A stretch of DNA of 36,001 nt from Streptomyces celluloflavus (GTDB taxonomy: Bacteria; Actinomycetota; Actinomycetes; Streptomycetales; Streptomycetaceae): assembly GCA_000720995.1 (NCBI GenBank), contig JOEL01000059.1, positions 1 to 36,001 on the forward strand, given 5' to 3'. Made by a program: the position numbers and the translations under genes. Positions within the stretch are counted from its first letter, which is position 1; each line of letters opens with the position of its first letter. The notes under the pieces were generated by a model. That model was not told where the DNA came from and did no database searches. It saw nothing but the letters and a program-made list of their open reading frames with translations. This document shows positions 6,736 through 25,417 of this stretch, one piece after another.

Positions 6736-6750
6736 CAACAATATTTGTTG
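6736..6750. promoter_or_regulatory. Perfect inverted repeat upstream of the CPYC oxidoreductase gene
   Basis: CAACAA-TAT-TTGTTG is a perfect palindrome with 6-bp arms and a 3-bp centre, the only AT-rich spot in its surroundings. It lies 43 bp upstream of the oxidoreductase start. It is a candidate operator; no regulator gene is adjacent. Confidence 0.4.
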
Positions 6751-6996
6751 CCAAACCAGGAACAACCCCAACCCAACAACCACCCACACACACCACCGCA
6801 CCCACCCACCCGACGCCGGGGTTCAACCCGGACGAACCGGCCGGCTATCCGGCTCATCAGGCCCTCGATCGTTTCCTGCCAGCGAGCAGGGTCCACGCTG
6901 TGACCTGCGGTCATCGCAAGATCGTCAGTCTTCACGCACCAATGATCAGCGGTGGTCGCAGCCTTCCCGCAGTCAACCCACGAGCAAGATCGAGGG

Positions 6997-7491
6997 CTAT
7001 GACTGGAGGTCGCGCTGGTACCAAGTGCCTGACTTGCCGCCGAGATCTGCCGGGGTGGCAGGGCCAACCGAGACGAACCCGGCCTTGGCCAAGACTTTCT
7101 GGGACGCGGTGTTGTCGTGGGAGGTGGCCGCCCGCAGTGTGAGCAGGCCGTACATCACTGTCGCCATCCGGCACAGCTCCCGGACGGTCGCGGTCGCCAC
7201 GCCGCGGCCGGCGACCCGCTCCGCGACCCGGTAGCCGAGTCTGGCAGTGCCGTCCTCCAAGTCGTACAGGTTGAACCTGCCGAGTACCGAGCCGTCCTCG
7301 GCGACGAGCACGTAGAAGGCGCAGATGCCGGCCTCCTGCTCGGTCAGCGAGGCGTTGTACCGATCGGTGAACTGGTCGAAGAAGTCGTCGCCACGGTCGG
7401 AGATCGAAGCAGCGAAGTAGGTACGGTTCGCCAGCTCGAAGGCCAGGACCGCCGGGGCGTGGCCGGCATGCAGCCGCTTCAGCTCGGGCAT
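6997..7491 (-). CDS. GNAT-family N-acetyltransferase (RimJ-like)
   Basis: A 164-residue protein of the Acetyltransf_3 type, which transfers acetyl from acetyl-CoA to an amine. The acetyl-CoA loop is seen as RVAGRGVATATVRELC, preceded by the beta-strand ARLGYRV and followed by LRAATSHDNTASQKVLAKAGF, the classic asparagine-containing motif. Length is normal. The ATG at 7491 has no Shine-Dalgarno sequence, but a promoter whose -10 box ends six bases before it predicts a leaderless mRNA. The acceptor is unknown. The gene is outside the C/A-rich zone and has ordinary codon use. Confidence 0.88.
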   Translation of the reverse strand: MPELKRLHAGHAPAVLAFELANRTYFAASISDRGDDFFDQFTDRYNASLTEQEAGICAFYVLVAEDGSVLGRFNLYDLEDGTARLGYRVAERVAGRGVATATVRELCRMATVMYGLLTLRAATSHDNTASQKVLAKAGFVSVGPATPADLGGKSGTWYQRDLQS

Positions 7492-7497
7492 TGCCCG

Positions 7498-7526
7498 ACC
7501 CTACCCAGATCGTGCGCCGAGGTCAC
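7498..7526 (-). promoter_or_regulatory. Leaderless sigma-70-type promoter of the GNAT gene
   Basis: Read on the minus strand, a -35-like GTGACC (7526-7521) and a -10 TAGGGT (7503-7498) are separated by 17 bp. The -10 box ends 6 bp before the ATG, so transcription would begin at or next to the start codon. Confidence 0.5.
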
Positions 7527-7740
7527 CTGAGTTTCCACCCGTGGCAGACAGCTCCAAGACCAGGGAACACAACGATCTGCGGCTGAAGTACAAAGCGGCA
7601 ACAGAGGCTCGATCAGCATCCACAAGTCGTCATTCACGATGCAGGGTCGAGTACTCGCACCATCCCGAACGGCCGAATCGACACACCGGTCACCCCTGAC
7701 CAGGGCATCTCACCAAGATCCTGTTACGAGCTCTTAGGGA

Positions 7741-8838
7741 TCAACGTTCCCGTTGCCGTCGTTCGTGAAAGATTTCCGTGAAGACGGCGACCTTTGCCCG
7801 TAGGGCCCAGGGGTCAAACGGCTTGGCGATGTAATCCACGGCCCCTGCGGAATATGCGCGGGCAGAATGTTCGGAGTCGATGCTCATCGCGGTAAGGAAG
7901 ATGATCGGCAGGTCCCTGTGACGGGCGCGCCGTTTGATTTGGGCTGCAGTCTCGTAGCCGTCCATCTCGGGCATTTGGACGTCCAGCAGCAGGACGGCGA
8001 AGTCGTCGTGGTCGAGGAGCGCTTTGAGTGCCTCCCGACCACTCGAGACAGCGACGATCTCCTGGTCCAAGCCGTCCAGCACTGCTGTCATGGCGAGCAG
8101 GTTCTCCGGCTGATCGTCGACCACCAGCACTTTAGGAAGGCAGGGCGAGTTGGGTTCACCAGCGGTGGTCTCAAGGGGATCCTGCCGCTGTTCCTCGATA
8201 GTGTCGATCTGCCGTTCCAACAGCTTGCAGCGTTCCTCCGCTTGGCTGTGTCGAACCTGGACCGCTTCCAGCTCGTTCGTAAGCCTGGTGACTTCGGAGC
8301 TCAGAGCGTCGCGTTCACGCAGCAGGTTGGCGATATCGGGAGCATTGGCCTCCAGAGCGTCAGCACGTGCTCGCTCCGCGCTCCACTCGGACTCCAGGTG
8401 TGTGAGGCGGACCTCGAGGTCGGCGATGCGGTGCTGACGGTCCAGCAGCGCTTCACCGATGACGTCGCTGTGAGCCGTTGTGCTGCGCGCCGTGCGGTCC
8501 GCGTCCGCGAGCTGCCTCTCGAGGATCTCCACCGCGTGCTTGGGGGAAGATGTGGTGGCGATGGCTGCCTGGTGCAAGCGGCGCAGCAGGTCCATTGCCT
8601 CTTGTGTGGCCGGCTTGCCGCGGTGTTCGGCGAGGTCGGCGAGCAGGTCCATGACCACGTCCCAGGGAGGGACGGCTCGGCCGCTGAAGTAGCGCGAGAA
8701 GGTGGCCGCGTTGCGGTGCCGTCTGCTGGAATAGCGGCGCAGGGAGACGTTCAGCCCTTGGAAGAGCTCCCGTAGTGCGATTGCCAGAGCTCGCGCTTCG
8801 TCGCTCAGCTCTTCTGGAAGCGGGTTCATCTCAGACAT
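7741..8838 (-). CDS. Response regulator with N-terminal HTH, central coiled coil and C-terminal receiver
   Basis: A 365-residue protein with unusual domain order. Residues about 13-70 (ALAIALRELF...TFSRYFSGRAVPPW) resemble the XRE-like helix-turn-helix of many streptomycete regulators. Residues about 100-220 form a long heptad-rich coiled coil. Residues 236-355 are a CheY-like receiver with Asp241/Asp242, phospho-acceptor Asp286 (LLLDVQMPEMDG), Thr316 and Lys339, so all key residues are present. Start ATG 8838 follows AGAGG; a longer frame to 8913 is unlikely because 8838 overlaps the preceding gene's stop (ATGTCTGA). No histidine kinase is adjacent. It may be phosphorylated by an orphan kinase, with dimerisation through the coiled coil. 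Confidence 0.85.
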   Translation of the reverse strand: MSEMNPLPEELSDEARALAIALRELFQGLNVSLRRYSSRRHRNAATFSRYFSGRAVPPWDVVMDLLADLAEHRGKPATQEAMDLLRRLHQAAIATTSSPKHAVEILERQLADADRTARSTTAHSDVIGEALLDRQHRIADLEVRLTHLESEWSAERARADALEANAPDIANLLRERDALSSEVTRLTNELEAVQVRHSQAEERCKLLERQIDTIEEQRQDPLETTAGEPNSPCLPKVLVVDDQPENLLAMTAVLDGLDQEIVAVSSGREALKALLDHDDFAVLLLDVQMPEMDGYETAAQIKRRARHRDLPIIFLTAMSIDSEHSARAYSAGAVDYIAKPFDPWALRAKVAVFTEIFHERRQRER

Positions 8839-9079
8839 GACGGTGAACCTCTTCGGACCCGTCGGCTTGAGGTAGTACGCTCTGAGCTGCGCAGTTCGCT
8901 TCGGTCTCCACAATGCGATCGAGGAGGGCGATCATTCCGCCTGCACCTGCCACTCCGCCCAGCAGGCTCTCAGCTATTGCGTGACCGGCCAGGAGCAATA
9001 GGGCCACGGTCACGACACCGCCCACCATGCCGAGGGATAGCAGCACGACCGCTCTCAGCGACAGCAACGACGGTTTCAC
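8831..9079 (-). CDS. Small membrane protein, two predicted TM segments
   Basis: An 82-residue protein with hydrophobic segments at about 9-35 (VVLLSLGMVGGVVTVALLLLAG) and 38-57 (SLLGGVAGAGGMIALL), ending in a short charged tail. The start is GTG 9079, preceded by AAAGGGG seven bases away. Its TGA overlaps the start of the receiver-domain regulator by eight bases, so the two are translationally coupled. I know no function. The pairing suggests a membrane anchor or input for the regulator (inference). Confidence 0.7.
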   Translation of the reverse strand: MKPSLLSLRAVVLLSLGMVGGVVTVALLLLAGHAIAESLLGGVAGAGGMIALLDRIVETEANCAAQSVLPQADGSEEVHRHV

Positions 9080-9825
9080 ATCGGGCCCCTTTGGCTATGA
9101 CCGCGTGATGCGGTGCTGGGCCGGCGCCATGCCGGCGAGCCCAGCATGGCGGCTGACGAACCGTTGCGATGCCGTTGCGGGAGCCACGTGGCGTTGCCTT
9201 CTCACTACAGGAGCGAATCGAACGCCAAAAGCCCAGTTGAAGCGCCAGCTGTTCCCATGCCGTGCCCGACATTGCAAGAGCAAGCTGCAACACCACGGGT
9301 GTTGCAGAGGAACGATTCCAGAGCGCGGTCCGCCGGCTCAGCGCGCGTCGTGAACGGCGTGATCGATACCAGAGGCGCTCATGGCCAAATCGCTTTGCAT
9401 GCATACCTTCTGGACCGCCAACGGTCGGGTGCCAGGCAGCGGGAGAACGTCAGGGCGCTGCAGCAGTGGACAAGCAGCAAGGGCCGGGTGTAGCCCGGCT
9501 GCCGTACGGGACCCGGCCAGCTGTCGCGAAGCCCCCGAAGCTGGTGTAGCCGGCCTCACGAGGGCGGGCCTCTCGCGTCGCGCAGCGGTTGAGTGCGCGC
9601 CGTGTCGACGGCGGCGAGAGCCACTCCGCCCTGATCATTCTTGACGATCGCCACCCCGCCCGTTGTGCCCTCCTCGACAGCCCGCTCGAAGCGGTCCGGC
9701 GAGGTGTTGAGCTTGCCTTGCGGAGCGACCATGAGCTTCGTCAGGCGTACCGCGTCTGGCACAGCACGGCGCGGTGCTCGTCCCGTTCTCCTCGGTCCGC
9801 CGAGCGATTGCCCTCCGGGTTACGC
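9080..9825. other. Intergenic stretch without a supported gene
   Basis: About 750 bp with no recognisable protein. A minus-strand frame at 9556-9762 (68 codons, MPDAVRLTKLMVAPQG start) has plausible amino-acid composition but no ribosome-binding site or family I can name; it might be a small hypothetical gene or part of the adjacent IS relic. A strong palindrome at 9286-9306 is listed separately. Confidence 0.5.
9286..9306. promoter_or_regulatory. Perfect 9-bp-arm palindrome, candidate operator
   Basis: TGCAACACC and GGTGTTGCA flank the 3-bp centre ACG. The symmetry is perfect over 18 positions and there is no T-run, so it looks like a protein-binding site rather than a terminator. It lies about 207 bp upstream of the small membrane protein gene, on the 5' side of that operon. 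Confidence 0.45.
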
Positions 9826-10005
9826 CAGCCGGCGTCCCTCCAGACCCGCAAGCGGCCATAGACCGTCGGCGACAAACCGTCGACCAGAGACCGAACTCGC
9901 AGTGCACCTCCCGCCACTGAGCAGCGGACCGGAACCGCCACACCACCCCCTCAAACTGCTACCGCAGCCGCTCAAGGTCGCCGATCGGCAGGTAGGGCGA
10001 TGAAC
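9826..10005 (-). pseudogene. Relic of an IS5-like transposase (N-terminal part)
   Basis: Reading the minus strand across frames gives YLPIGDLERLR, stop (9959-9961), QFEGVVWRFRSAAQWREV, then TVYGRLRVWRDAG after a frameshift near 9870. This matches the conserved N-terminal block of IS5-family transposases (V-x-R-T-G-x-QWR, then TVY-R-W). There is no catalytic domain: only about 60 codons survive, with a stop and at least one frameshift. Ends of the element are not identifiable. Confidence 0.6.
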
Positions 10006-10094
10006 TTCCCTTGTGCGTCGGTGAGTTGCCTGCGCGTCCCGTCCAGCGTTCTACCGGGTTCCGCCCCCGAGCAGGGGCGGAACCCGACGATTCA

Positions 10095-10784
10095 TCACGG
10101 CCTCGCGTCTGCCTGGACCTGGCGGCCTGCTGCGGAGGCGAAGCCGAGCCAGGTGTGCCGGTTGCCCGCCCAGCACCAGCCGACCTTGGGGGCGTTACGG
10201 CGCTCGCGGCCGTCCCGCCCGGTGCCGTTGCTGATCCAGATCGCCGGGGTACGGGCGTCCAGGGCGCCGTTGGCCTTGCGCAGCCGGGAACCAATGGTCA
10301 TGAAGCAGTGGTTGCGCTCCAGGACGGCGGGCTGCTGGAGCACCCAGTAGAGGCCTTCAGTGATCACCAACGGGGTGCGGGTTTGTGCGGTGAGGGCGGG
10401 CAGCGCCTCGTCCGGACTCCAGTTGGCCATCTGGTCGCCACGGTCGAGGCCGGTGAGGAGGTAGAGGGGTGCATCGGGCAGCGCGACCGTTTCGAGCGGG
10501 GCGAAGAGGTCGACGTCGGTCATGTCGGTGACGACGAAACCCGGCTTGCCGTCGCGGCGGAGCAGCGGCGCGAGGGCGGAGGCAGGGGCCTGGTCCGGGT
10601 GAACAGCGAGCAGTGCACCATCGCCGACCGCAGAAACCTCGGCGGTCTCGGCGAAAGTACGCAGCTCGGCGGCGGGCAGTCCGGCGATCTCGTGCACCCC
10701 CAGCTCGATCAGACGCTCGGCCTGCACGCTCAAGGATGGGAGTACCGGGAGAACGGTGGAGGTAACGGACGTGGTTTCGGGCAC
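10095..10784 (-). CDS. DUF5701-like conserved protein
   Basis: A 229-residue protein matching my memory of the DUF5701 family of Streptomyces. Blocks that look conserved are LSVQAERLIELGVHEIAGL near the N-terminus, FVVTDMTDVD, PLYLLTGLDRG, MANWSPDEALP, LLQQPAVLERNHCF and the C-terminal block WISNGTGRDG...GWCWAGNRHTWLGFASA. No catalytic motif is obvious. I chose GTG 10784, which has GGGAG just upstream; the frame remains open to 10910, but the extra 42 residues are Gly/Pro-rich and look non-coding. No operon partner is visible. Function unknown. Confidence 0.75.
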   Translation of the reverse strand: MPETTSVTSTVLPVLPSLSVQAERLIELGVHEIAGLPAAELRTFAETAEVSAVGDGALLAVHPDQAPASALAPLLRRDGKPGFVVTDMTDVDLFAPLETVALPDAPLYLLTGLDRGDQMANWSPDEALPALTAQTRTPLVITEGLYWVLQQPAVLERNHCFMTIGSRLRKANGALDARTPAIWISNGTGRDGRERRNAPKVGWCWAGNRHTWLGFASAAGRQVQADARP

Positions 10785-11180
10785 GACGCTCCCAGGGAAG
10801 GACTCGACGGGTCCAGGGAGAACGAGGCGGCCCGCCGGAACATTCCCGCCGCTGCCGCTTCCGTCTTTCCCGACAGACTCGGCTTCACCACGCAGACGAT
10901 CCGCCGCCATGCCAGCATGGGCGACCGGAAGAACGTGCCGAAGTGGAGGTCCTGCCCTCGCGTGGCAGGAGGCACTGAAGAATGAGCGCTGCTGGGCGGG
11001 CCTGAAGAATTACGAGGAGCGCGCAGGCCCGTTCTCTGGCCTGCCTTCAGCCACCCGATCCGCAGAGCCTGGCGCCTTTCTGCCTCCCAGGGCACGCCAG
11101 CTGCCCGTCTCGTGGAAATGTTCGCCGCACTTGCCACGGTCGGTGCTCTCGCCGTTCCCGGGGAGCGTCAGGTGGGGCCG
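10785..11180. other. Intergenic stretch, nothing recognised
   Basis: About 400 bp between the DUF5701 gene and the end of the MFS gene. Open frames here are composition-driven. I see no RNA, repeat or convincing promoter. Confidence 0.5.
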
Positions 11181-12494
11181 TCAATGACGAGGCAGGACCG
11201 GCTCGCCGTCGGGATCCAGCGGAAGTTTCGCATTACTCGCCGGCCGACGGGTCGTCGGCAGGTCCCGGGACCGCCGGATCGGGGAGAAGAACAGGATCAG
11301 CGCGGCGAGCGGCACTCCCGCCGTTGTTATCCACATCGCTGTGCGGATGCCGAGCGCGGTGCCGAGCGCGCCGCCGAGAACTGCCCCGAGGGGGATGGTG
11401 CCGTAGTTGAGGAATGCTGTGCTTGCAGTGAGGCGGCCGAGTAGTTCTGGTGGGCAGTAGCGTTGTTGGAAGCTTGACTTGATGACATTGCCGGCCACGA
11501 CGCCGGCGGAGACGCAGAAGCCGCCCGCGACGTAGAGCAGTATCCCGGCTCCGCCGGCGGTCAGCGGGATGAGCAGCGCGAATATCGGAAGACCCAGTTC
11601 GAACAGCAGCATCGCGCGGGCCGTGCCGACTCTGCTTGCGACCCGGCGTGCGACGAAGGCCCCGACAACACCCCCGGTGCTGGCAGCCGCGATGAGTGCA
11701 CCGACCGTCCCGGAGGGCAGACCGACGTTCCGGACCAGGAAGATGACCAGGATCGATTGGTATCCCATGAGGGCAAGGTTGGAAGCGGCCCCGAAGGCTG
11801 TCAGCGTGCGGAGCCACGGGTCGTCGACAACCAATCGCAGACCCTCGCCGACCTCGCTGAACAGTGCTCTGGGGCGGCGTTCGGCCTTGGTGACGCGTGG
11901 CTCGCGGTGCCGGATACCGGCCAGGCAGAGGAGGGCGACGAAGAACGTCGCGGCGTTGGCGAACATCCCGTTGACCGCGCCCGCCAACTGTGCGATCAGA
12001 CCACCGGAGCCGAGCCCGGCGATCTGGGCGGCGGACGCGCTGCCGTGCAGTTTGGCGTTGCCCTCGGGCTGGTCCGCGGGTTCCAGAATGCTGGGGAGAT
12101 AGGCGCTGTAGGCGGTCTGGAAGAACACCGCTGCCGTGCCGGTCAGCAGGGCGACGGTCAGCAGCAGTCCGATACTCAACCGGCCGAACCACGCGGCGAC
12201 CGGGAGGCCGGCGAAGAGCAGGAAAGAGATTGCGGCAGCGGCCAGCATGATCGGCCTGCGCCGCAACCGGTCCACCCAGACACCGACGGGCAGACCGACG
12301 ATCAGCCAAGGGGCCCAGGCGGCGGCGCTCAGCAGACCGACTTCGAACGTTCCGGCGTGCAAGGTGGAGACGGCAACCAGCGGCATCGCCACCCCGGTGA
12401 CGGACGCGCCGAACTTGCCGGCGGTCTCGCCGCACCACAGCAGCCGGAAGTCGCGGTGGCGACGCAGGAGGCCACCGCCTGTGCCCTGGCTCAT
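11181..12494 (-). CDS. MFS transporter (MFS_3, EntS-like exporter)
   Basis: A 437-residue membrane protein with about 12 hydrophobic helices, normal length for this family. It begins with the typical LLRRHRDFRLLWCGETAGKFG segment; the loop after helix 2 carries VGVWVDRLRRRP, the MFS motif A region. A second-half segment FQQRYCPPELLGRLTAS is characteristic of MFS_3 proteins that export siderophores, macrolides or other small molecules by proton antiport. Its ATG overlaps the stop of the upstream ArsR-like regulator gene (ATGA), so the pair forms an operon probably controlled by that regulator. The substrate is unknown. Confidence 0.9.
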   Translation of the reverse strand: MSQGTGGGLLRRHRDFRLLWCGETAGKFGASVTGVAMPLVAVSTLHAGTFEVGLLSAAAWAPWLIVGLPVGVWVDRLRRRPIMLAAAAISFLLFAGLPVAAWFGRLSIGLLLTVALLTGTAAVFFQTAYSAYLPSILEPADQPEGNAKLHGSASAAQIAGLGSGGLIAQLAGAVNGMFANAATFFVALLCLAGIRHREPRVTKAERRPRALFSEVGEGLRLVVDDPWLRTLTAFGAASNLALMGYQSILVIFLVRNVGLPSGTVGALIAAASTGGVVGAFVARRVASRVGTARAMLLFELGLPIFALLIPLTAGGAGILLYVAGGFCVSAGVVAGNVIKSSFQQRYCPPELLGRLTASTAFLNYGTIPLGAVLGGALGTALGIRTAMWITTAGVPLAALILFFSPIRRSRDLPTTRRPASNAKLPLDPDGEPVLPRH

Positions 12495-14339: not shown

Positions 14340-15439
14340 ATGACGACCACCGCGGCAACGGATGAGCCCCAGGACAGAGAGCAGTGGATCAGGATCGAAG
14401 GGGCCCGGACGAACAACCTGCGCGATGTCTCGGTGCGGGTGCCGAAACACCGGATCACGGTGTTCACCGGCGTATCCGGATCGGGTAAGTCATCGCTGGC
14501 GTTCGGCACGATCGCGACCGAGGCGCAGCGTCTGGTGTCCGACACCTATCCGCTGTTCGTCCGCAACCGGCTGCCTCACGGGAGAGCGGCCGACGTCGAC
14601 CGGCTCGATGGGCTGATGTTCACCACGATCGTGGACCAGCGTCCGTTCACCGGCAACGCGCGCTCGACCGTGGGCACCGCGAGCGATATCGCCCCCTTGT
14701 TGCGCTTGCTGTTCTCGCGCATCGGCAGCCCGGTGGCGGGATTCTCCCCGGCGTACTCCTTCAACGACCCCGGCGGGATGTGCCCACGGTGCGAAGGTCT
14801 CGGTGTCGTGGACGATATCGACCTGGACCTGCTGCTCGATCGGAGACGGAGCCTGCGCGAGGGCGCGATTCGGTTCCCGACGTTCGCGCCGGGAACCTAC
14901 CGCTGGAAACGCATGGTCCACTCCGGGCTCGTCGACCCCGACCAGCCGTTGGCCGCACTCCCGGCGGCCGGTCTGGACACGCTGCTCCACGCGGAAGGGC
15001 TTCGCCTCTCCGATCCCGATCCGGAATACCCGAAAGCCGGGAGGTTCGACGGTGTCGTCCCCCGACTGCGTACCAGCTACCTGCGCAAGACTCCCTCTCG
15101 GCTCACCGACGAGGAGAAGACCGCTCTCGACCGCGTCGTCACCCGCTCCACGTGCCCGGAATGCGGCGGAACGCGGCTCAACGCAACAGCCAGGGCCAGC
15201 CTGATCGACGGCCGGTCCATCGCGGACTGGACGGCCACACCCATCGGTGAACTGCGCCGGATCGTCGCTGCCCTTCGGTTCCCGTCCGTCGCACCGCTCG
15301 TCCGGACGATTCGGGAGCGGCTCGACGCGATGAAATCGGTGGGGCTGGGCTACCTCAGCCTCGATCGCGCCTCGAACACCCTCTCCGGTGGCGAGGCCCA
15401 GCGGGTCAAGATCGTCCGGCATCTCGGCAGTGCTCTGAG
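14340..15439 (+). pseudogene. UvrA-like drug-resistance ATPase (DrrC type), 5' part, interrupted
   Basis: The first 366 codons of a UvrA-family protein lacking the full DNA-repair architecture, as in DrrC, which protects DNA from intercalating antibiotics. Visible are Walker A (GVSGSGKSS), a zinc-finger region (CPRCEGLG and CPECGG) and the ABC signature (NTLSGGEAQRVKIV). The gene breaks directly after the signature, at 15439, where element A begins; read-through adds only about 20 foreign residues to a stop at 15500. The rest resumes at 21914. The start is ATG 14340 with GGAGAG upstream. The N-terminal nucleotide-binding domain has lost its Walker B in this fragment, so the product should be inactive. 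The mutation looks recent because both halves are otherwise intact. Confidence 0.9.
15435..15439. repeat. Target-site copy 1 (CTGAG), left of element A
   Basis: The pentamer CTGAG is the last UvrA-coding sequence before element A. The same pentamer follows element A at 17459 and element B at 21909. Confidence 0.75.
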
Positions 15440-15447
15440 CTTGATCT

Positions 15448-16904
15448 TTAACCTGTGCGCCGTGGGCGAGGGGTGGCTGACGGCTTCTTCTTCCGTTTAA
15501 CAGTGTCCCTTTTGCGGACTGTGTGGACGTCGTGACGTGGGGTGGGGCGGGCGTTCTTGCGGCCTGGTGGCCGCCCCGGTCCTGGGCTGGTGGGTTTCGG
15601 TGCGCCGGCGGGGCATGCGGCCTTGGGTCGGAGGTGCCGGAAGTCGCGGCGGACGCGGCTAGGGGTGAGTTTGTGCGGTTCGCTGGGCTTCTCCCAGGGG
15701 CGGCGTAGATCGGCTGCCAGCGGCCGGGCGAGTCGGAGCTGGGCATAGACCGCGAGGATCAGCCAGGTCCATCGATCTGCGGCCTCGGGAGTGCGGATCT
15801 TCGGACAGGTCCAGCCCAGGGTCTGTTTGAAGAACCGGAAGGTGTGCTCGATGTCGAAGCGCCGCAGGAATGCCTGCCAGAGCCGGTCGACGTCCTCGCT
15901 GGTGGCACCGGTGCCCGACCACCACAGCCATACCGGCTTCGGGGTTGCTCCGCTGGGCAGCCGCTGGACCTTGAGATGGATCACAGTGCCCTCGATGACC
16001 GGGAGGGTGCCCAACTGGGCGGTCCAGGCGGAGCGGTGGGTCAGCCGCGGGTGGAGTCGATCCCATGCCTGTGCGCTGGCCTTCCCGTAGAGGCGGGTCT
16101 CCGCCACCGTCTCGGTGTCAGGTCTGCCCCAGGTGGCCGGGTCCCCGAAGACGAACTCGCCGCCGTGACGCGGCGGGCGGCCCATGGTGTGGGTCTCGCG
16201 GGGTGGTGCGGCCCGGCGCAGGACACGGTCCGAGCGCATCCGTCCCAGCACCTGCACCGGCAGGTCTTTGAGGAGGAAGGCCAGACGCGGTACGTCATAG
16301 CCGGCGTCGACCACGATGAGGATGTCCGGGTCGCCCTGACTCCATTGTCCTGATTCGATGAGGCGCTCGATGAGCTCGCGCATCTGCCGCGCGGTCACTG
16401 TGGCACCGTCATCACCCGGCGCGAGCCGCAGCGCGTCCAGCGGCGCGGTCCAGGAGTGCGGCCCGTCTCCAGCGCGCAGATCACCGAGTACGGCCAGCCC
16501 GGAACGGGGATGTGCTGGTCCTTGCCACGGCCATAGGTGTGGCACAGGACCCGCTCGGGCGAGGTATGCGCATCCGGTCGCAGCCAGCAGGTGATGTCGG
16601 CGGCCAGCACCAGGCGGCCGTCGGCCGCCCGTGGCAAGGGCACCCCGGCCACGGCCCGCCGCAGTCGGGACACGTCCGCCCGACCGGCGGCCAGGGCGGC
16701 GTACAGGCTGCCGTGCCCGCGGCGATGCTCGCCCACCAGCGACAACTCGACCAGCGACCTAACGGGTCCGTCCGCACACAACACCGCATCCGCCAGCTCG
16801 AACAGCGCGTCCGCACGCGAGACCAGACACGAATAGAACTCGCTCCGGAAGCGTGACAGTTCCGCGAACGGCTCCACCAGAGCGGCGTTGTGCAACAGAC
16901 TCAT
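15448..16904 (-). pseudogene. DDE transposase of element A, single-base frameshift
   Basis: Starting at ATG 16904 (MSLLHNAALVEPFAEL) the frame runs to about 16457, where GGCCGCAC seems to have lost one C. The conserved continuation (HSWTAPLDALRLAPGDD) follows in the next frame to the TAA at 15448. Restoring one base gives a 485-residue transposase. Catalytic-type blocks are LVLAADITCWLRPDA, ILIVVDAGYDVPRLAFLL and the glutamate in FDIEHTFRFFKQTLGWTCPKIR. The C-terminal tail is Arg/Lys-rich. If the deletion is real the element cannot move on its own; it could also be a sequencing error in a C-run. Confidence 0.85.
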
Positions 16905-16998
16905 GCCACGGCCTTCGTGCTGAACATGCGTGTCCTTGGTCGGAGCACATGATCAACCGAAGGCGACTTCCCCGACCGGCGAATGCCCGTCCGGGCGA

Positions 16999-17406
16999 TC
17001 AAGTTCGGAGCGACGTTCGAGGCCAGTCCATGGGCATCGGTCCTACGCAGCACGCAGCACACGGTGCCGGTTCGGGGCGCAGATATCGGCCCCAGACCTG
17101 GGCCTTTCGGTATGGCCCGGCCCCGTCACAGTCGTATTGCGGGGCGTCGAAGGTGACCCAGTACGCCAACTCGCCGTCGTGTGCACGTACGTGCTCTACG
17201 GGCTCGGGGGCACCCATCGCGTCAATCATCCCCGTGAACTCGATCTGCCAGGGTCCGTCCCACTCCGGATCACGGACCACTGTGACCCGGCTGCCTGCGG
17301 GCAACGCCTTCGTGGGCCACTCCTCAAGCAGGGAACAGCCCTTGACGAGTTCGACAGCCAGCCGATCACGCGAGGTCGACGAGTCGGAAGAGGGAGAAAC
17401 GGTCAC
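16999..17406 (-). CDS. Passenger protein of element A (annotated in relatives as FeoA-like)
   Basis: A 135-residue protein starting at GTG 17406, between the transposase gene and the right end of the IS. The core GSRVTVVRDPEWDGPWQIEFTG is a small beta-barrel-like segment, followed by ELAYWVTFDAPQYDCDGAGPYRKAQVWGRYL. I recall homologues carrying the label ferrous iron transport protein A, probably from weak SH3-barrel similarity; a real iron-transport role is doubtful. Lying inside the terminal repeats, it moves with the IS and may be an accessory transposition or regulatory protein (inference). Confidence 0.65.
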   Translation of the reverse strand: MTVSPSSDSSTSRDRLAVELVKGCSLLEEWPTKALPAGSRVTVVRDPEWDGPWQIEFTGMIDAMGAPEPVEHVRAHDGELAYWVTFDAPQYDCDGAGPYRKAQVWGRYLRPEPAPCAACCVGPMPMDWPRTSLRT

Positions 17407-17458
17407 GCACCTCAGCTTCCCTGCAAAGCAACCTCACCGCCACAGGTTAAATGCCAAG

Positions 17459-17463
17459 CTGAG
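17459..17463. repeat. Target-site copy 2 (CTGAG), between elements A and B
   Basis: This pentamer is shared by the right flank of element A and the left flank of element B. The two elements are separated by nothing else. Confidence 0.75.
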
Positions 17464-17582
17464 TACGTGTTTCTCAACTCGGAGCGTCGAAGATGCGTGG
17501 CGGGCGGCAGTGGGCGTTAGGCAGGAGAATGTGACGGATAGCCACGCGGACGCCGGCGGGGGCACGAAGGTGCGCGGTGGTA

Positions 17583-18326
17583 TCAGCCGCGGTCGCGTAT
17601 CAGGGCGAGGGCGCCGCTGCGGCGGCCGTGCACCGTTACGAGGGTCTGTGCCATGCCCAGCAGGACGACCAGCACCACGACACCCAGCGAGGGCACGCTG
17701 TCGATGGGGAGCGTGTAGGCCATTACCACGCGGGCGATGGCGTCGATGAGGAAGGCAATTCCCCATGCCGCACTGGCCACTTGCATCCATCGGCGGACGA
17801 CGGGGGTGCTGTGCCAAAGACCGTTTAGGCGTTGCGCCGTGCCAGTCGGAGTGACTTTGATGGCCACGTCCAGGAGGAAGGGGCGGGCCATCGCCAGGGA
17901 GCCGAGGATCCACAGGCCCAGCGCCGCGGTGACCCAGCTCTCCCGTGCCAGCAGTGCTCGGGGGTCACCGGTGACCATGGCGACGAGTACCGAGAGCATC
18001 ATCGCAGCGATCACGAACATTGCGGTCGGATCCGCGCGCCGCTGTCGCACCCACGTCATGAGGACGCTGGCAAGCGGGGCTATGCCCGCGAGAACCAACG
18101 ACAGCCACTGATCGATCCCCGCGGCCCGGCTCCCGTAGAACACCGCGAGCGGAATCGCCACATCAAGCGCCAGCGCCGTCCATGCTTGTGCCCCTGACGG
18201 TTCCGACCCCTCGGGGCGCCCGTGGGTGGCGGTGGTGCCACCATGGTGATCGTTGTTCGCGCCACCTGTTCCGTGCACTCTTAACTCCCCCTTGGCTGGT
18301 TCGGTGTCGTCGACGTGCGGGCTCAC
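17583..18326 (-). CDS. VC0807-like integral membrane protein
   Basis: A 247-residue protein with a hydrophilic His/Gly-rich N-terminus (1-45) and about six hydrophobic segments, beginning ALDVAIPLAVFYGSRAAG. Segments such as SWVTAALGLWILGSLAMARPFLLDVAIK match the VC0807 group of putative membrane proteins as I remember it. The start is GTG 18326, whose GTGA overlaps the stop of the TetR gene, so the two are one operon. It may be an efflux or intermembrane protein repressed by the TetR regulator; the substrate is unknown. Confidence 0.7.
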   Translation of the reverse strand: MSPHVDDTEPAKGELRVHGTGGANNDHHGGTTATHGRPEGSEPSGAQAWTALALDVAIPLAVFYGSRAAGIDQWLSLVLAGIAPLASVLMTWVRQRRADPTAMFVIAAMMLSVLVAMVTGDPRALLARESWVTAALGLWILGSLAMARPFLLDVAIKVTPTGTAQRLNGLWHSTPVVRRWMQVASAAWGIAFLIDAIARVVMAYTLPIDSVPSLGVVVLVVLLGMAQTLVTVHGRRSGALALIRDRG

Positions 18327-18961
18327 GCCCGCACCCTCGCCGTTGCTCGGTCGAACAGCTCCACCAGATCGCGGGCGTAGCCGTCCAGGTCGAGGTCGCC
18401 AATCGCGTTCAGTTGCGGTCCGATCGCGTCGATCGCCGCGCGGATCGACATGGCCATGGTGCGGGTGTTGAACTCGACGAACTGGCCCTGCTCCTGGCCG
18501 CGTTGCAGGATGTCCTGCAGCGGGGCGAGGCTGTCGCCGTAGACCGACGCGTCGAGCGGCAGAAGCCGGGAGCGGCCGTCCTCGTCGGTGAAGTTCATCG
18601 CGATCGCCACCAGCGCCTTGACCCGCTCGCGGTGACTGCCGATGTATTCGACATTGGCCTCGATGTACGCCCGCAACTCATCAGCAGGTGTGTGCTCTTG
18701 GCGTGATCGCGCGGCCATGAACTCCGCCCCTTGCTTCGTGACCACGGCGAGGACCTCATGGATCAACGCGTCACGCGTGGCGAAGTGGTAGAAGATCGCC
18801 TGCTTGGTGATCCCCGCCCGCCGCGCGATCTCGGCCAGCGACGCCCGGTGCAACCCCACGTCCGCGATGGCCTCGATCGCACAGTCCACCAACTGCGCCC
18901 GCCGCGCCTCTTCGATGAAGGTTCTCTCTTGTTTACCGCTTGCTCGATTTTTTGACCGCAC
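18323..18961 (-). CDS. TetR-family transcriptional regulator
   Basis: A 212-residue regulator with the TetR_N domain at about 20-65: AQLVDCAIEAIADVGLHRASLAEIARRAGITKQAIFYHFATRDALIHEV. A variable C-terminal ligand domain follows. I chose GTG 18961 (VRSKNRAS); a longer frame to 19012 lacks support. The start lies inside an inverted repeat and is preceded by TACGTT at -10 distance, so the mRNA may be leaderless and self-repressed. It probably controls itself and the coupled membrane protein. The nested IS5-like element begins only about 70 bp upstream. Confidence 0.85.
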   Translation of the reverse strand: MRSKNRASGKQERTFIEEARRAQLVDCAIEAIADVGLHRASLAEIARRAGITKQAIFYHFATRDALIHEVLAVVTKQGAEFMAARSRQEHTPADELRAYIEANVEYIGSHRERVKALVAIAMNFTDEDGRSRLLPLDASVYGDSLAPLQDILQRGQEQGQFVEFNTRTMAMSIRAAIDAIGPQLNAIGDLDLDGYARDLVELFDRATARVRA

Positions 18962-18968
18962 GGTAAAA
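18951..18968. promoter_or_regulatory. Candidate TetR operator over the tetR start
   Basis: TTTGACCG-CA-CGGTAAAA is an inverted repeat with 7 of 8 paired positions. A further half-site TTTACCG lies at 18932-18938 inside the gene. Its location over the start codon and next to the TACGTT box fits autorepression. Confidence 0.5.
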
Positions 18969-19029
18969 ACGTAGCATGCGCGCTCCAGCTTTGCGACGGA
19001 TCCACATAGCATCGCGGCGTTCGAACGCG

Positions 19030-19905
19030 TCTAACCGCCGGCCGGCGCCGGGTTCCTTGGCCAGCTGGGGGTGGCGCCTTTCCGGGCGAGGCGCCTGGTC
19101 ATGAGGGTGATGGCTGCCCAGGTGATCAGCGTCTCGGAGTGTTGAACGAGCCGTTCGTAGTCCCGGGCGTGTCGGCGCGCGTGCATCATCCACGCAAGAC
19201 TGCGTTCGACGACCCACCGACGAGGGAGTACGACGAAGCCGGAGGCGTCCTTGGGTCGGCTGACCGGCTTGATCGTGAGGTTGAGGTGCTGTTTCGCCCA
19301 GTCGACGAGCTTGCCGGCATAGGCGGAGTCGGCCCAGACGATGGTGATCTCGGGGTGCATGAGGCGGAGGCGGAAGAGGACTTCCTTGGCGGCGGCGCTG
19401 TCGTGCAGGTCGGCCGGGGTGACCATGACCAGCAGCGGCAGGCCGCGGGTGTCGACGACGATGTGGCGCTTGCGGCCGTTGATCTTCTTGCCCGCGTCGT
19501 AGCCGCGGGAGTCGCGGCCGACGGTCTCGGCTGCCTTGACCGACTGGGAGTCGATGACGGTGGCGACCGCGCGGGGGCCTTTGCCCATCTCGCGGCGGAT
19601 CCGGCTGGCCAGCGCGTCGCGGATCTGCCCGATGACGCCGGCGGCGGCCCACCGGGCCATGAAGCCCCAGACTGTGCGTCATGGCGGGAAGTCCGCGGGG
19701 AGGGCCCGCCATTTGCAGCCGGTGTCCACGACGTAGCGGATGGCGTCGACGATCTCGCGTCGCGGGTGCTTCTCCGGCCGTCCGCCCGCGAGCGTCTCGC
19801 AGGCTGGGGTCGGCAACAGCGGTTCGATCAGGGCCCATTCGGCGTTGGTGGTGTCGGAGGGATAGCGGCGCTTGCGCATGGCGGGCTCCCTCCGGTGGCG
19901 GTTGG
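19030..19905. mobile_element. IS5-like insertion nested in element B (ends approximate)
   Basis: About 0.88 kb holding a single transposase gene. Possible terminal repeats are CTAACCGCCGGCCGG at the left and CCAACCGCCACCGG read inward from the right, but they are short and imperfect and I cannot see a target duplication. It lies between the tetR promoter and the racP terminator, where insertion would be harmless. Confidence 0.5.
19031..19879 (-). pseudogene. IS5-family transposase with an internal stop codon
   Basis: ATG 19879 starts MRKRRYPSDTTNAEWALIEPLLP, the standard IS5 N-terminus. After CKWRALPADFPP a TGA (19681-19679) stands where Trp (TGG) is expected before RTVWGFMARW. The frame then continues unchanged to a TAG at 19031. 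The catalytic domain is present: DSQSVKAAETVG, GRKRHIVVDTRGLPLLVMVTPADLHD (second Asp) and VVERSLAWMMHARR (Glu). One substitution therefore inactivates an otherwise complete 282-codon gene. It is not the obvious mover of element B, since its own ends lie inside it. Confidence 0.85.
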
Positions 19906-19941
19906 GGCGGGGCGCCCGGCCCTTGGCCGGGCGCCCCGCCC
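19905..19941 (-). terminator. Strong hairpin terminator after racP
   Basis: GGGCGGGGCGCCCGGCC and its exact complement form a 17-bp perfect stem with a 3-nt loop (CTT). It begins 9 bp past the racP stop codon on the minus strand. There is no U-run, as is common for streptomycete terminators. Confidence 0.75.
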
Positions 19942-19949
19942 GTTGGTGG

Positions 19950-20368
19950 TCAGGAAGAGACGACGAGGTCGAGGGTGGACTCGATCGAGTTGAGCTGGGC
20001 GATGATGTGCTTCACCCACTTGTCGCTCGGGTGGGCGGCAGCGTGCGGAGCAACGGTGCCGGTGATGAACCGGCGGAACTCGGTGAGCTTCTCGGTGAGC
20101 ACGGCCCTCTCGTATGCCTGAAGGGCGGCCAACTCCGCGCCGAGCTGATAGCCATCGGCCCTGGTCCAGATCAGCGGGGCCAGCCGTTGGCGGCGATGAT
20201 GTCGCGGAAGGCCGCAAGCCCGGAGCGGACCTGGCTGGGGGACAGTCCGCTGGCGCGGACCAGCTGAGGGAACAGCAGCCCGGCGGGCCGGGCCTCGAAC
20301 AGCACGAACCGAAGGGTGTCCGCATGCCGCTGGGCGGCCTCGCCCCGTCGCCGTGAGGCGCGGGGCAT
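19950..20368 (-). pseudogene. racP: racP-like gene with a one-base deletion
   Basis: ATG 20368 opens MPRASRRRG..AAQRHADTLRFVLF, followed by FPQLVRASGLSPSQVRSGLAAFRDII, a winged-helix-like block. The frame stops at NGWPR, but shifting by one base at the four-C run (20176-20179 on the plus strand) restores LIWTRADGYQLGAELAAL and the tail KLTEFRRFITGTVAPHAA...KWVKHIIAQLNSIESTLDLVVSS, ending at 19950. Adding one base gives 139 residues, which fits RacP proteins of Streptomyces as I remember them. The start is 2 bp past the DUF6192 stop, so the two genes are coupled. The deletion could be real or a sequencing error. Function unknown; DNA binding is likely. Confidence 0.75.
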
Positions 20369-20370
20369 CC

Positions 20371-21381
20371 TCACTCGCCTCGCAGCATGCGGGCGAGCTC
20401 GCCGTCCATGTCGACCTTGCCGGTGTCGACCGCAGTCTCGATCCAGTCCAGCGTCGCTCGGACCTTGGCGATGTTCTCGTGCACGATGGTGCGTTCGTCC
20501 TCGCCCAGTGTGCGGTCCCGCAGGCCGGGAACGGCCCGGCCGGCCGCGGTCACGAAGGAGTGGCAGGCGGTGACCAGGTCCAAGAACTCCACACTGCGGT
20601 CGATGTGACGGACTGCTGGCGCGACCGGGCTGGTGTCCTCGAAGTGCTCGCGGGCCTGTCGGCCCCGCTCGACCTGGGCATGGTTGACCTGGAGCCGGGC
20701 GGTGTCGTCGCTCATCGCTTTGAACGCGACGTCTGGACGCCGCAGCAGGCCGGTGGTCACCTGGGCGGCGACGTGGTCGTCCCGGGTGAACTCCTCCACC
20801 ACTCGGACCCTGTCCTCCGGCTTGACCTGGGCGGCGACCGCTGGCCGCCTCAGGAAGTCGGTGGTGACCACCGCGGCGACTTCCTCGTCCCGGGCCAAGG
20901 TGTGGATCGCGGTGATCTTCTCCTGCGGTGAGGTGGGGTTCTCCACCTGTCGGCCGACGCGCCGGTTGGCGTCGTCGACCGTCCACCGCTTCTTGCCCTC
21001 CGGCGGGGTCTTGATCGAGGCGAACCGCTCTTCCTCGCCAGGAATGCTGCCCAGGACCCGGTGAACGGTGAACGACACCCCGGCCTGACGATGTTCCTTC
21101 GGCCAACGCGACGCTGTCCACCGCGCGTTCTCCACCGTGGTGCGGCGCAACCCGATGTCCTCCGCCAGCCGGGTCAGGGCCTGCCGGACGGTGAACAGGT
21201 CCCGTCCCGGCAAGGCTTCCCGGCCGTCGTCGGCCCCACGCATCGGTTCGATCTCCAAGGCGCGATCGCCGATCGTGAACTGTCCCTGAGTCTGCTGTTC
21301 AACCACTTGCCGCAGCTCGGCCACGATCTGCTCGTAACGCTGGTGGCTGACGTTTCCGACCTTCTCGGTTTCCTCCGACAT
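20371..21381 (-). CDS. DUF6192-family protein
   Basis: A 336-residue protein starting at ATG 21381 (MSEETEKVGNVSHQRYEQIVAEL), preceded by AGGGTGG; an alternative GTG at 21393 adds four residues. Segments are QFTIGDRALEIEPM, then a helix-turn-helix-like block FTVRQALTRLAEDIGLRRTTVENARWTASRWP. A region with twice-repeated VAAxVTTxxLRRPxVA (about 165-220) follows, and the C-terminal block is IAKVRATLDWIETAVDTG..DMDGELARMLRGE. The fold of the first part is reminiscent of ParB/KorB-type DNA-binding proteins, but that is only an impression. It is coupled to racP and ends in a strong terminator, so the pair is a closed two-gene operon in element B. Confidence 0.8.
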   Translation of the reverse strand: MSEETEKVGNVSHQRYEQIVAELRQVVEQQTQGQFTIGDRALEIEPMRGADDGREALPGRDLFTVRQALTRLAEDIGLRRTTVENARWTASRWPKEHRQAGVSFTVHRVLGSIPGEEERFASIKTPPEGKKRWTVDDANRRVGRQVENPTSPQEKITAIHTLARDEEVAAVVTTDFLRRPAVAAQVKPEDRVRVVEEFTRDDHVAAQVTTGLLRRPDVAFKAMSDDTARLQVNHAQVERGRQAREHFEDTSPVAPAVRHIDRSVEFLDLVTACHSFVTAAGRAVPGLRDRTLGEDERTIVHENIAKVRATLDWIETAVDTGKVDMDGELARMLRGE

Positions 21382-21544
21382 GGTGTTCACCACCCTGCGG
21401 GCCGCCGCACGGTCCCGAAGTCCATGACGTGGACACGACCCGCTTGAAACCGAGAGTCAAACCGCAAATCGGAAGATCGCAACGAGTGATTGCAAATGAC
21501 CGAATGGTGAACGAAATTGGCTCTCGGAGGCGTTCGTTCAGTGG

Positions 21545-21859
21545 TTACTGTGACCGTTCGGCGAACGATTCCTTCCGCCGCCTCCAGGACCTCACGACGC
21601 ACTGCCGCGAGTAGAACACGGCGTCCGAGCGGCGGTCGACGCCGGCCACCCAACGAGCCCCGCACTCGGGACACTCGACCTCACCGACACCGCCCTGTAC
21701 GGCTGCCAGCCGCTTCCGCAACCGCCGTTCCGTACGCCACTGCCTGGCACGACATGCCGACGAACAGAACGACGCATCAGGCCGGGCGCTCGGCCGAAGG
21801 CGTTCACCACAAGCCCGACAGTTCCTCTCCCCGGCCCGCCCGGTGCCCTTGAACACCAC
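21545..21859 (-). CDS. Small protein with two zinc-finger-like motifs
   Basis: A 104-residue basic protein starting at GTG 21859. It has CRACGERL followed 14 residues on by CSSACRARQWR, and later CPECGARW followed by CVVRSWRRR. The first set has the form C-x2-C...C-x3-C, typical of DNA-binding zinc ribbons; the second set lacks one ligand. Both halves end in Arg-rich helices. It lies just inside the right end of element B, upstream of and in the same direction as the DUF6192-racP operon. It could bind the element's end or its promoter (inference). Confidence 0.6.
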   Translation of the reverse strand: MVFKGTGRAGERNCRACGERLRPSARPDASFCSSACRARQWRTERRLRKRLAAVQGGVGEVECPECGARWVAGVDRRSDAVFYSRQCVVRSWRRRKESFAERSQ

Positions 21860-21908
21860 GCCAGCGTAGGACCCAAGGCTACTCGGAACCGGGCATCAGA
21901 AACACGTA

Positions 21909-21913
21909 CTGAG
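21909..21913. repeat. Target-site copy 3 (CTGAG), right of element B
   Basis: Third copy of CTGAG. The following base completes codon AGC, and the UvrA-like reading frame resumes. Confidence 0.75.
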
Positions 21914-23117
21914 CGATGTCTGCTACGTGTTCGACGAGCCGAGCGCCGGTCTGCATCCGCACGACGTCCACCGTCTGCTCACTCTGCTCACGCAGTTGCG
22001 CGACGCACACAACACGGTGCTCGTCGTCGAGCACCACCCGGCCGTCATCGCCGCCGCCGACCACATCATCGACCTCGGCCCCGGCGCGGGCACCGACGGC
22101 GGGCTCATCCAGTTCGAGGGCACACCCGCCGAGATCGGCGCGACACGCACGGCAACAGGCCGGATGCTGCACACCCGCATCCGGGTCAACGACCGCCCGC
22201 GCACCGCGCGCGAGGTGGTGACGATCAGCCACGCCACCGCGCACAATCTCCACGGCATCACCGTGGACGTCCCACTCCGAGTGCTCACCGCGGTCACGGG
22301 TGTCGCCGGCTCGGGCAAGAGCACCCTGATCGCCTCGGAGCTGCCGCGCCAACACCCCGGCTTCACGGTCATCGGGCAGGTGCCGCTGCACGGTGGAATC
22401 CGATCGACGCCGGCGACCGTGCTCGACATCGCCGAGCCGGTTCGCGAGGCATTCAGCTACGCCACGGGGCTGCACCCCTCGTGGTTCAGCGCCAATTCGC
22501 GAGGCGCCTGCCCCGTGTGCAAGGGCAGAGGCATCGTCGTCACGGACCTGGCCTTCCTCGACGACGTGCGAACAACCTGCGAAGCCTGCGACGGCAGCCG
22601 CTTCAACCCCACTACCCTCGCCGCCGGACTCCACGGCCACACCATTGCCCAAACCCTGTCGATGAACGCCAGCCGGGCCAAGGACCTCTTCTCCGACCAC
22701 CCCGAGATCACCCGGCGACTCGCCTGGCTCGACCAGGTCGGGCTCGGCTACCTCACCATCGGACAGAGCCTCGACACCCTTTCCGGAGGAGAACGGCAAC
22801 GCCTCCTCCTCGCACGGCACCTCTCGACCACCGAGTCGGCTCACCAGCGGATCGTGCTCGACGAACCCACCGCAGGACTCCACGGAAACGACGTCGACGA
22901 CCTGCTGACGCTGCTCGACCGACTCGTCGACTCCGGCGCCACCGTCATCGCCATCGAACACAACCAGCGCGTCATCGCCCACGCCGACCATGTCATCGAC
23001 CTCGGCCCCGGCGCAGGCGCCGACGGCGGGCGCATCCTCTATCAGGGGCCACCTGCCGGCCTGATCGCCAGCCCCCACTCCCTGACCGGCCGGCACTTGC
23101 GCGACTTCGTGAGGTAG
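21914..23117 (+). pseudogene. UvrA-like drug-resistance ATPase (DrrC type), 3' part
   Basis: This resumes exactly where 15439 stops: joining the two gives 2304 bases, 767 residues plus stop. It carries Walker B of the first domain (YVFDEPSAGLHPHD) and the complete second ATPase: GVAGSGKSTLIAS, a zinc motif CPVCKGRG..CEACDGSRF, signature DTLSGGERQRLLLARHL and Walker B IVLDEPTAGLHGND. The fragment has no start codon or promoter of its own, although an internal GTG (21927 region) could in principle be used. No internal stops or frameshifts are seen, so separation from the 5' part appears recent. Confidence 0.9.
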
Positions 23118-24643: not shown

Positions 24644-25417
24644 ATGAAGGTGCTCAACGACACCCGCACCGCGTTCGCCCGCGAGCTGGGGCCCGAACTG
24701 CGCCAGCCGGTCGGCCTCCTCTTCACGATGCTGCTGCCCTTCCTCTTCCTCGCCCTCTTCGCTCCCCTGCTCCCCGGCATGAGCCCGGCGGGCGGGGACA
24801 CGGGCGCGGGCTCCCGCTGGCAGTGGTTCGCGCCCGGCATGCTCGTCCTGCTGGCACTCTCCGCCACCGCGGGAGCCGGGGCCTCCCTGCTCAACGAGAT
24901 GTCCTCGGGGACCTTCGAGCGGATGCTCGTGACCCCGCTCAACCGGGCCGCGATGCTCGTGGGGCGGGCCCTCAAAGAGGTCGTGATCCTGGTGACGCAA
25001 GCCCTGTTGATCCTCGCCCTGCTGCTGCCGACCGACTTCCGGCTCCGCCCGCTCGGCGCCCTGGCGGGCCTGGCGCTGCTGACCGTCTTCGGGATCGGGA
25101 TCGGCACGCTCTCCTTCACCCTGGCGCTCCACTCCCGTAAACAGCAGACCCTGTTCTACGGAGTGCAGCAGATGATCTTCTTCCCCCTGCTGCTGCTCTC
25201 CGGCGTCCTGCTACCCATCATCCAGACCTCGGCCCCCACCTGGCTCTACGTCCTGAGCCGGATCAATCCCGCGACCTATGTGGTCGAGGCCGAACGCGCC
25301 CTGTTCGACGGCCGGTTCGCCGAGACGAACGTGCTGTACGGGATCCTCGCGGCCATGGCCATCGCGGTGCTGGGGGTCGTCGCGGGCATCCGCGGTATGC
25401 GCAACGCCTCCGTGTGA
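24644..25417 (+). CDS. ABC-2 type permease (DrrB type)
   Basis: A 257-residue membrane protein with about six hydrophobic segments, starting MKVLNDTRTAFARELGPELRQPVGLLFTMLLPFLFLALF. The ABC-2 region includes MSSGTFERMLVTPLNRAAMLVGRALKE, the cytoplasmic coupling loop typical of DrrB/NodJ-like permeases, and the segment FPLLLLSGVLLPI. The gene follows the ATPase by 2 bp (TGACCATG), so they are co-translated. Together they should export a hydrophobic antibiotic across the cytoplasmic membrane. Confidence 0.92.
   Translation: MKVLNDTRTAFARELGPELRQPVGLLFTMLLPFLFLALFAPLLPGMSPAGGDTGAGSRWQWFAPGMLVLLALSATAGAGASLLNEMSSGTFERMLVTPLNRAAMLVGRALKEVVILVTQALLILALLLPTDFRLRPLGALAGLALLTVFGIGIGTLSFTLALHSRKQQTLFYGVQQMIFFPLLLLSGVLLPIIQTSAPTWLYVLSRINPATYVVEAERALFDGRFAETNVLYGILAAMAIAVLGVVAGIRGMRNASV

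What the first reader, a model, noticed from the sequence alone, without database searches (positions are those of the whole stretch)
14340..23117. DrrC-type UvrA gene split by two adjacent elements that share one target pentamer
The two halves join at codon AGC to give exactly 768 codons with no other damage when 15440-21913 is removed (element A, element B and two extra CTGAG copies). CTGAG occurs at 15435, 17459 and 21909. Element A and element B have unrelated ends, yet both appear to have used the same five bases in the same register. Either both prefer this site, or one was guided to the junction of the other, or they moved together. The break lies between the ABC signature and Walker B of the first ATPase, so resistance should be lost unless the insertion is reversible.
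Basis: seen in the sequence. Interest (0 to 1): 0.8.

Follow-up and report, generated by a model that had tools for sequence, protein, structure and literature searches.

The report
Two transposons sharing one landing site
A bacterial gene is split by two unrelated jumping elements that landed, one after the other, on the same five-letter site, and the same pairing recurs in dozens of related bacteria, which suggests that one kind of element uses the edge of the other as a landing pad.

Summary
CTGAG at 15435, 17459 and 21909 bounds element A (15440-17458) and element B (17464-21908) inside a UvrA-like gene. A is an NF041680 (IS701-related) element; B is a Tn4811/IS4811-type IS5 transposon. 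Both transposase genes look broken, so self-excision is unlikely.

The pairing is not a one-off. The pattern A-end|CTNAG|IS5-like end occurs 61 times (this locus included) in 46 of 392 same-genus genomes; the pattern read backwards occurs 0 times. I read 76 distinct junctions, 74 after merging look-alikes, some in trains of four or five abutting ends.

Shared preference alone does not explain it. 5 of 21 B ends found by their own sequence carry an A end at the flanking pentamer, against 0 of 75 other CTNAG sites within 1.5 kb of the remaining 16 (one-sided p = 3e-4).

Best reading: stepwise insertion, the second element drawn to the first one's target duplication by the adjoining terminus. Which came first is unresolved, and how the attraction works is inferred.

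The parts
14340..15439 (+). left piece of UvrA-like host gene (366 whole codons), ending in target copy 1
15435..15439 (.). target pentamer copy 1, CTGAG
15440..17458 (-). element A: NF041680/IS701-related insertion element, 2019 bp, imperfect terminal repeats CTTGATCTTTAACCTGTG / CTTGGCATTTAACCTGTG
15448..16904 (-). transposase of A in two overlapping frames (15448-16545 and 16395-16904), frameshifted
16999..17406 (-). passenger ORF of A (135 aa); the matches to A listed in other genomes stop before it; 67-72% identical over 72-79% of its length to proteins of four Streptomyces plasmids, three of them annotated 'ferrous iron transport protein A'
17459..17463 (.). target pentamer copy 2, CTGAG, shared by A and B
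17464..21908 (-). element B: Tn4811/IS4811-type transposon, 4445 bp, terminal repeats TACGTGTTTCT
17583..18326 (-). cargo of B: VC0807-family protein
18323..19012 (-). cargo of B: TetR-family regulator
19037..19879 (-). IS5-family transposase of B with one in-frame stop; 92.5% identical over 281 aa to a plasmid relative (L044)
20371..21393 (-). DUF6192 protein of B
21909..21913 (.). target pentamer copy 3, CTGAG
21914..23117 (+). right piece of UvrA-like host gene (400 residues plus stop)

Best explanation
Two separate insertions hit the same pentamer. Each element duplicates a CTNAG on insertion (the 5-bp staggered cut by its DDE transposase is inferred). The first insertion (inferred: B, a Tn4811/IS4811-type IS5 transposon) duplicated CTGAG in the UvrA-like gene. 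The second element (inferred: A, an NF041680 element) then inserted into one of B's two flanking copies, giving CTGAG-A-CTGAG-B-CTGAG. The second element did not pick that pentamer only because it is a CTNAG: a CTNAG that adjoins a terminus of the other family is used more often than other CTNAG sites, so the adjoining terminus, or a transposase bound to it, or the state of the DNA left by the first insertion, attracts the second element. Shown: boundaries, duplications, shared target, recurrence, excess over nearby sites. Inferred: the order of insertion and the molecular cause of the attraction.
For: Identical pentamers around both units. Exact 5-bp duplications in 13 of 18 A-type and 11 of 19 B-type elements with both ends read; the other 13 of 37 differ at one base (this set was partly chosen for junctions and, for plasmids, for pentamers alike at 3 or more letters; 4 of the 13 plasmid modules, L041, L047, L049 and L052, had no convincing left end and were left out). 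A ends found by their own sequence: 48 of 80 at CTNAG. Junction pattern: 18 contigs of genome contigs; a broader pattern, 61 places in 46 of 392 genomes, 0 for the pattern read backwards (this controls for composition, not for A ends with any neighbour). 76 distinct junctions in 71 loci, 74 after merging those alike at 70% on both sides, so they are not copies of one event. B ends found by their own sequence (window's right end included): 5 of 21 abut an A end; around the other 16, 20 CTNAG sites outside and 55 inside within 1.5 kb have no A end (one-sided p = 3.3e-4; the model of the A end was fixed before this sample was drawn). A ends at CTNAG: 11 of 48 abut an IS5-like terminus motif, against 2 of 459 background CTNAG site-strands (p = 1.2e-10, but the motif was written after I had seen these flanks, so this p is too small). 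Trains: A-B-A-A in L067, IS5-A-IS5-A-IS5 in L245, A-B-A in L046, L053 and L187.
Against: No genome with only A or only B in this gene was found, so the order is not seen. Two-sided neighbours do not decide it: 5 of 25 IS5-like elements have A on both sides, 3 of 37 A elements have IS5-like ends on both sides (p = 0.25; distinct elements counted by hand, and some far ends called by the script are doubtful). At most junctions the partner is identified by its terminal repeat alone: of 10 B-side ORFs scanned from 8 junction loci none hit an IS5 transposase and one (L055) hit a DDE_3 transposase of another kind; of 7 A-side ORFs scanned 6 hit NF041680, 5 of them over the cut-off, and 1 (L071) hit nothing. 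IS5 transposases beside an A end were seen in the window, L046, L053, L174, L175 and L180. A's own close subfamily mostly targets 4 bp and showed no IS5-like end in 29 loci by the motif used, so A is atypical here. A-A junctions also exist (6 of 37 A elements next to a junction; 1 of 80 ends, L163, by eye), so the attraction may not be strictly between the two families. The A flanks without a neighbour (37) show no strong base preference outside the pentamer, though C is common at -1 (18) and -6 (20); this was not tested.
Confidence: 0.75

Rival explanations
1. Shared target only: both families cut at CTNAG, and the second landed on the first one's copy by chance.
For: Both families do use CTNAG.
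Against: About 13,700 CTNAG sites per genome and about 1e-5 A ends per site and side cannot give 5 of 21; nearby CTNAG sites had an A end 0 of 75 times.
Confidence: 0.08
2. Survivorship: insertion next to a resident transposon is harmless, so only such insertions persist.
For: Element edges are likely neutral ground in a compact genome (inference).
Against: CTNAG sites inside the resident elements and in their flanks should often be as harmless, yet 0 of 75 carried an A end. Insertions of A into the interior of IS5 elements were not searched for genome-wide.
Confidence: 0.1
3. A and B moved into the gene as one unit.
For: A-B-A units exist with two A copies of the same protein accession and, in pFRL4, outer pentamers that differ from the inner ones.
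Against: Here there is one A copy, the outer ends belong to different families, and outer and inner pentamers are identical. L053 can also be explained by inversion between its two inverted A copies (inference).
Confidence: 0.07
4. The order is the reverse: A first, and the IS5-type transposase of B is attracted to the duplicated pentamer of A.
For: The final structure is the same; three A elements are flanked by IS5-like ends on both sides (L176 and two in L245).
Against: Five IS5-like elements are flanked by A on both sides; the counts do not separate the two orders.
Confidence: 0.35

Closest known systems
Tn4811 / IS4811 (Streptomyces lividans, plasmid SLP2)
   Same: IS5-family transposase, DUF6192 gene, and a right terminal repeat at CTNAG; 2.8-kb module 79.4% identical.
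   Different: Cargo is TetR plus VC0807 protein; beside the SLP2 module lie an AraC regulator and an SDR oxidoreductase. B's transposase has an in-frame stop. No convincing left end of the SLP2 copy was found with the motif used.
NF041680-family elements (IS701-related)
   Same: Same transposase family and terminal repeats of the form CTTGNNNTTTAWC.
   Different: Frameshifted transposase, passenger ORF, 5-bp CTGAG duplication where close relatives mostly have 4 bp.
IS4321/IS5075 (IS1111 group) at Tn21-family termini
   Same: Insertion elements that seek the end of another transposon (title of Partridge and Hall 2003, seen in a reference list).
   Different: By that title they target the terminal inverted repeats themselves, and IS1111/IS110 types use a DEDD transposase with a guide RNA (title, start of abstract and passages of PMC11187229). 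Here a DDE-type element uses the duplicated pentamer outside the repeat.
IS231A at Tn4430 (recalled)
   Same: IS4-family element with a preference for a transposon end (recalled; no held paper has IS231A, Tn4430 and 'target' together; papers with IS231 and Tn4430 were listed and not read for this).
   Different: Duplications of 10-12 bp for the IS231 subgroup (Table 1 of PMC2266710, passages); no shared pentamer with its neighbour (recalled).

Membership tests
IS701 family (element A) | DDE_5-type transposase related to IS701 | tested here: met
   Pfam DDE_5 on both pieces; NF041680 best, IS701 models weaker and below cut-off
IS701 family (element A) | 4-bp target duplication in almost all members (PMC2266710, passages) | tested here: not met
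   5-bp CTGAG around A; 16 of 25 close relatives have an exact 4-bp duplication
IS701 family (element A) | typical size 1400-1550 bp (PMC2266710, Table 1) | tested here: not met
   2019 bp with a passenger ORF
NF041680 family (element A) | score above the curated cut-off of 440 bits over the whole protein | tested here: inconclusive
   two frameshifted pieces score 399.6 and 176.4 bits; 5 of 7 A-side ORFs at other junctions score 495-605, one 281, one nothing
Tn4811/IS4811 type (element B) | IS5-family transposase plus DUF6192 module and a shared terminal repeat | tested here: met
   IS5_3 122.2 bits against cut-off 110 for the longer open piece; DUF6192 406.5 bits; module match to SLP2; ends
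Tn4811/IS4811 type (element B) | as defined in the original 1992 description | not testable with these tools
   paper not held; only citations of it were seen
Composite transposon | two like copies flanking a passenger | tested here: not met
   one full A copy in this assembly; the other two matches are 37-43 bp
UvrA excinuclease (host gene) | score above the UvrA equivalog cut-off | tested here: inconclusive
   pieces scored apart: 231.1 and 374.6 bits against a whole-protein cut-off of 1147
DrrC-type drug resistance (host gene) | confers resistance | not testable with these tools
   name rests on similarity; a DrrB-like permease (79.1 bits, below its cut-off of 223) lies downstream

The most novel reading that the evidence does not exclude
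The transposase of one family recognises the terminus of an unrelated family (or a protein bound there) and inserts into the target duplication beside it; because each insertion makes a new copy of the pentamer next to a terminus, the elements assemble into growing transposon trains in Streptomyces, each joined to the next by a single CTNAG.
Probability: 0.45. Interest if true: 0.72.

Novelty: new variant of a known kind. Interest (0 to 1): 0.55.

Why it matters
Insertion elements that seek the ends of other transposons are known, but the best documented ones named here target the terminal repeat. A preference for the target duplication outside the repeat, shared by two unrelated transposase families, gives a simple route by which transposons stack into trains and composite units without further gene disruption. 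It also gives a testable system for how a transposase senses a neighbouring transposon end.

Tried and rejected
Chance use of a common pentamer: disfavoured. A base preference of A beyond the pentamer: 37 A flanks without a neighbour show no strong one, untested. Local clustering of mobile elements: disfavoured. One inherited junction counted many times: rejected. Deciding the order from two-sided neighbours: inconclusive. Finding the empty site in a close relative: best gene 59% identical among 199 genomes.

Literature (one named library only; search listings unless said): IS231A with Tn4430 and target (none), IS701 family with target site duplication, Streptomyces and IS5 family (none), CTNAG (17 papers with two of three terms, none of the 10 listed has CTNAG), adjacent or tandem insertion in Streptomyces (none with four terms), NF041680 (none), IS4811 (two papers unrelated by title), Tn4811 (eight; passages of two read, citations and one mention only). 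Searches gave background papers; passages were read of PMC11187229 and PMC2266710.
Full report
WHAT IS THERE. The window lies in an 8.68-Mb assembly (G000, contig C59). Its genus is very probably Streptomyces: a genome of the same genus, G311, has a contig C761 with the same length (30,388) and the same junction sequence as the named S. glaucescens contig behind L062. CTGAG occurs at 15435-15439, 17459-17463 and 21909-21913. Between the first and second lies element A (2019 bp), between the second and third element B (4445 bp). Each has its own inverted terminal repeats and each is flanked by identical pentamers.

HOST GENE. The pieces on either side resemble UvrA (231.1 and 374.6 bits, scored apart, against a whole-protein cut-off of 1147). 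One search covered 199 genomes (193 with a match) and returned 20 loci, one of them the window; in the other 19 exactly one codon separates the ends of the two pieces (for minus-strand loci read by hand from the coordinates, as the script printed the gap wrongly there). The best relatives are 59% identical, too distant to show the original pentamer. Drug resistance was not tested; a DrrB-like permease, below its family cut-off, lies at 24644-25417.

ELEMENT A is an NF041680-family element, related to IS701. Its transposase is split over two overlapping frames, whereas four relatives have one frame of 486-495 residues. A 135-aa passenger ORF fills its right part; the matches listed in other genomes stop before it, and four plasmids carry a protein 67-72% identical over 72-79% of it, annotated 'ferrous iron transport protein A' in three. 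Of 25 close relatives of A with a right end found, 16 have an identical 4-bp duplication (CTAG or TTAG), one has CTTAG (5 bp) and 8 have no exact one. The wider family more often uses CTNAG: 48 of 80 ends found by their own sequence.

ELEMENT B matches a module of IS5 transposase, RacP and DUF6192 genes found on many Streptomyces plasmids, including the Tn4811/IS4811 copy on SLP2. Its cargo, a TetR regulator and a VC0807-family protein, has only short matches in the plasmid collection (7 records, at most 13% of the stretch). Its transposase has one in-frame stop. Of 19 B-type elements with both ends read, 11 have identical pentamers and 8 differ at one base. Of the 13 plasmid modules, 4 (L041, L047, L049, L052) had no convincing left end and are not in that count.

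RECURRENCE. In at least 2 of 13 B-type modules fetched from plasmids, NF041680 elements occupy the pentamer on both sides of B. In L046 all four pentamers are CTCAG; in L053 (pFRL4) the outer pair is CTGAG and the inner pair CTCAG, with the A copies inverted. A scan of genome contigs for the junction gave 18 contigs, from Streptomyces, Kutzneria, Micromonospora, Nonomuraea and Actinacidiphila. A broader pattern, whose IS5 side is loosely defined, gave 61 places, this locus included, in 46 of 392 same-genus genomes; the pattern read backwards gave 0. I read 76 distinct junctions in 71 loci; merging those alike at 70% on both sides leaves 74. Trains, judged by abutting ends: A-B-A-A in L067 and IS5-A-IS5-A-IS5 in L245.

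IS IT MORE THAN A SHARED TARGET? (1) B ends found by their own sequence: 22 places in 19 of 295 genomes, 21 distinct, the window's right end among them; 5 abut an A-type end. Around the other 16 there are 20 CTNAG sites outside and 55 inside within 1.5 kb; none has an A end (one-sided p = 3.3e-4). The A-end model was fixed before this sample. (2) A ends found by their own sequence in 150 genomes: 84 rows, one of them a doubled row. I fetched 80 stretches, leaving out the window's two ends, the doubled row and one place (G325). 81 ends were read, 80 with enough flank. Of 48 at CTNAG, 11 abut the motif AACRNNNW of an IS5-like terminus; of 459 background CTNAG site-strands (window and L012-L040) 2 do (p = 1.2e-10). 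That motif was written after seeing the flanks, so the second p overstates the case; the first sample carries the argument. Two flanks of the 4-bp subfamily (L127, L167) look like IS5-type ends but miss the motif.

HOW SURE IS THE PARTNER? IS5 transposases beside an A end were seen in the window, L046, L053, L174, L175 and L180. At most other junctions the partner is named by its terminal repeat: of 10 B-side ORFs from 8 junction loci none hit an IS5 transposase; the hits were an adenylate kinase (L067), a Tectonin domain (L066), a MerR regulator (L056) and a DDE_3 transposase (L055). On the A side 6 of 7 ORFs hit NF041680, 5 over the cut-off; L071 hit nothing.

ORDER. The final structure is the same whichever came first. 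5 of 25 IS5-like elements have A on both sides, 3 of 37 A elements have IS5-like ends on both sides (p = 0.25; elements counted by hand, some far ends doubtful). I favour B first, because A belongs to a subfamily that mostly uses 4 bp and here sits at B's pentamer, but this is weak.

AGAINST MY READING. A-A junctions occur too (6 of 37). Pentamers differ at one base in 13 of 37 elements, and in L174 all three differ, so some junctions may have been remade. A's own subfamily showed no IS5-like neighbour in 29 loci by the motif used.

VERDICT. The locus itself is an ordinary double insertion. The recurrent use of the neighbour's target duplication by unrelated families was not found in the library searched and is best called a new variant of the known habit of some insertion elements to seek transposon ends.

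Noticed in passing
L245 (G064:C15:140400-158000), 6018-11508: Train of abutting ends IS5-A-IS5-A-IS5, joined by single CTNAG pentamers.
   Followed up: partly
L192, 8347-8616 and L187, 4047-4679: Short units of 270 and 633 bp with B-type ends and CTNAG or TTCAG flanks, MITE-like.
   Followed up: no
L067, 1369-4444 and L066, 3981-6036: B-type elements carrying an adenylate kinase gene (L067) or a Tectonin-domain gene (L066); no transposase among the two ORFs scanned in each.
   Followed up: no
L050, 231-8852: A B-type element whose two outer flanks are inverted copies of an IS5-like terminus, as if inserted between two abutting ends.
   Followed up: no
window 34220-35716: Mycosin-type serine protease gene (type VII secretion-associated), TIGR03921 just above cut-off.
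   Followed up: no
L053 (pFRL4), 3359-10441: A-B-A unit with inverted A copies and outer pentamers that are the reverse complement of the inner ones: a move as a unit or an inversion between the A copies.
   Followed up: partly
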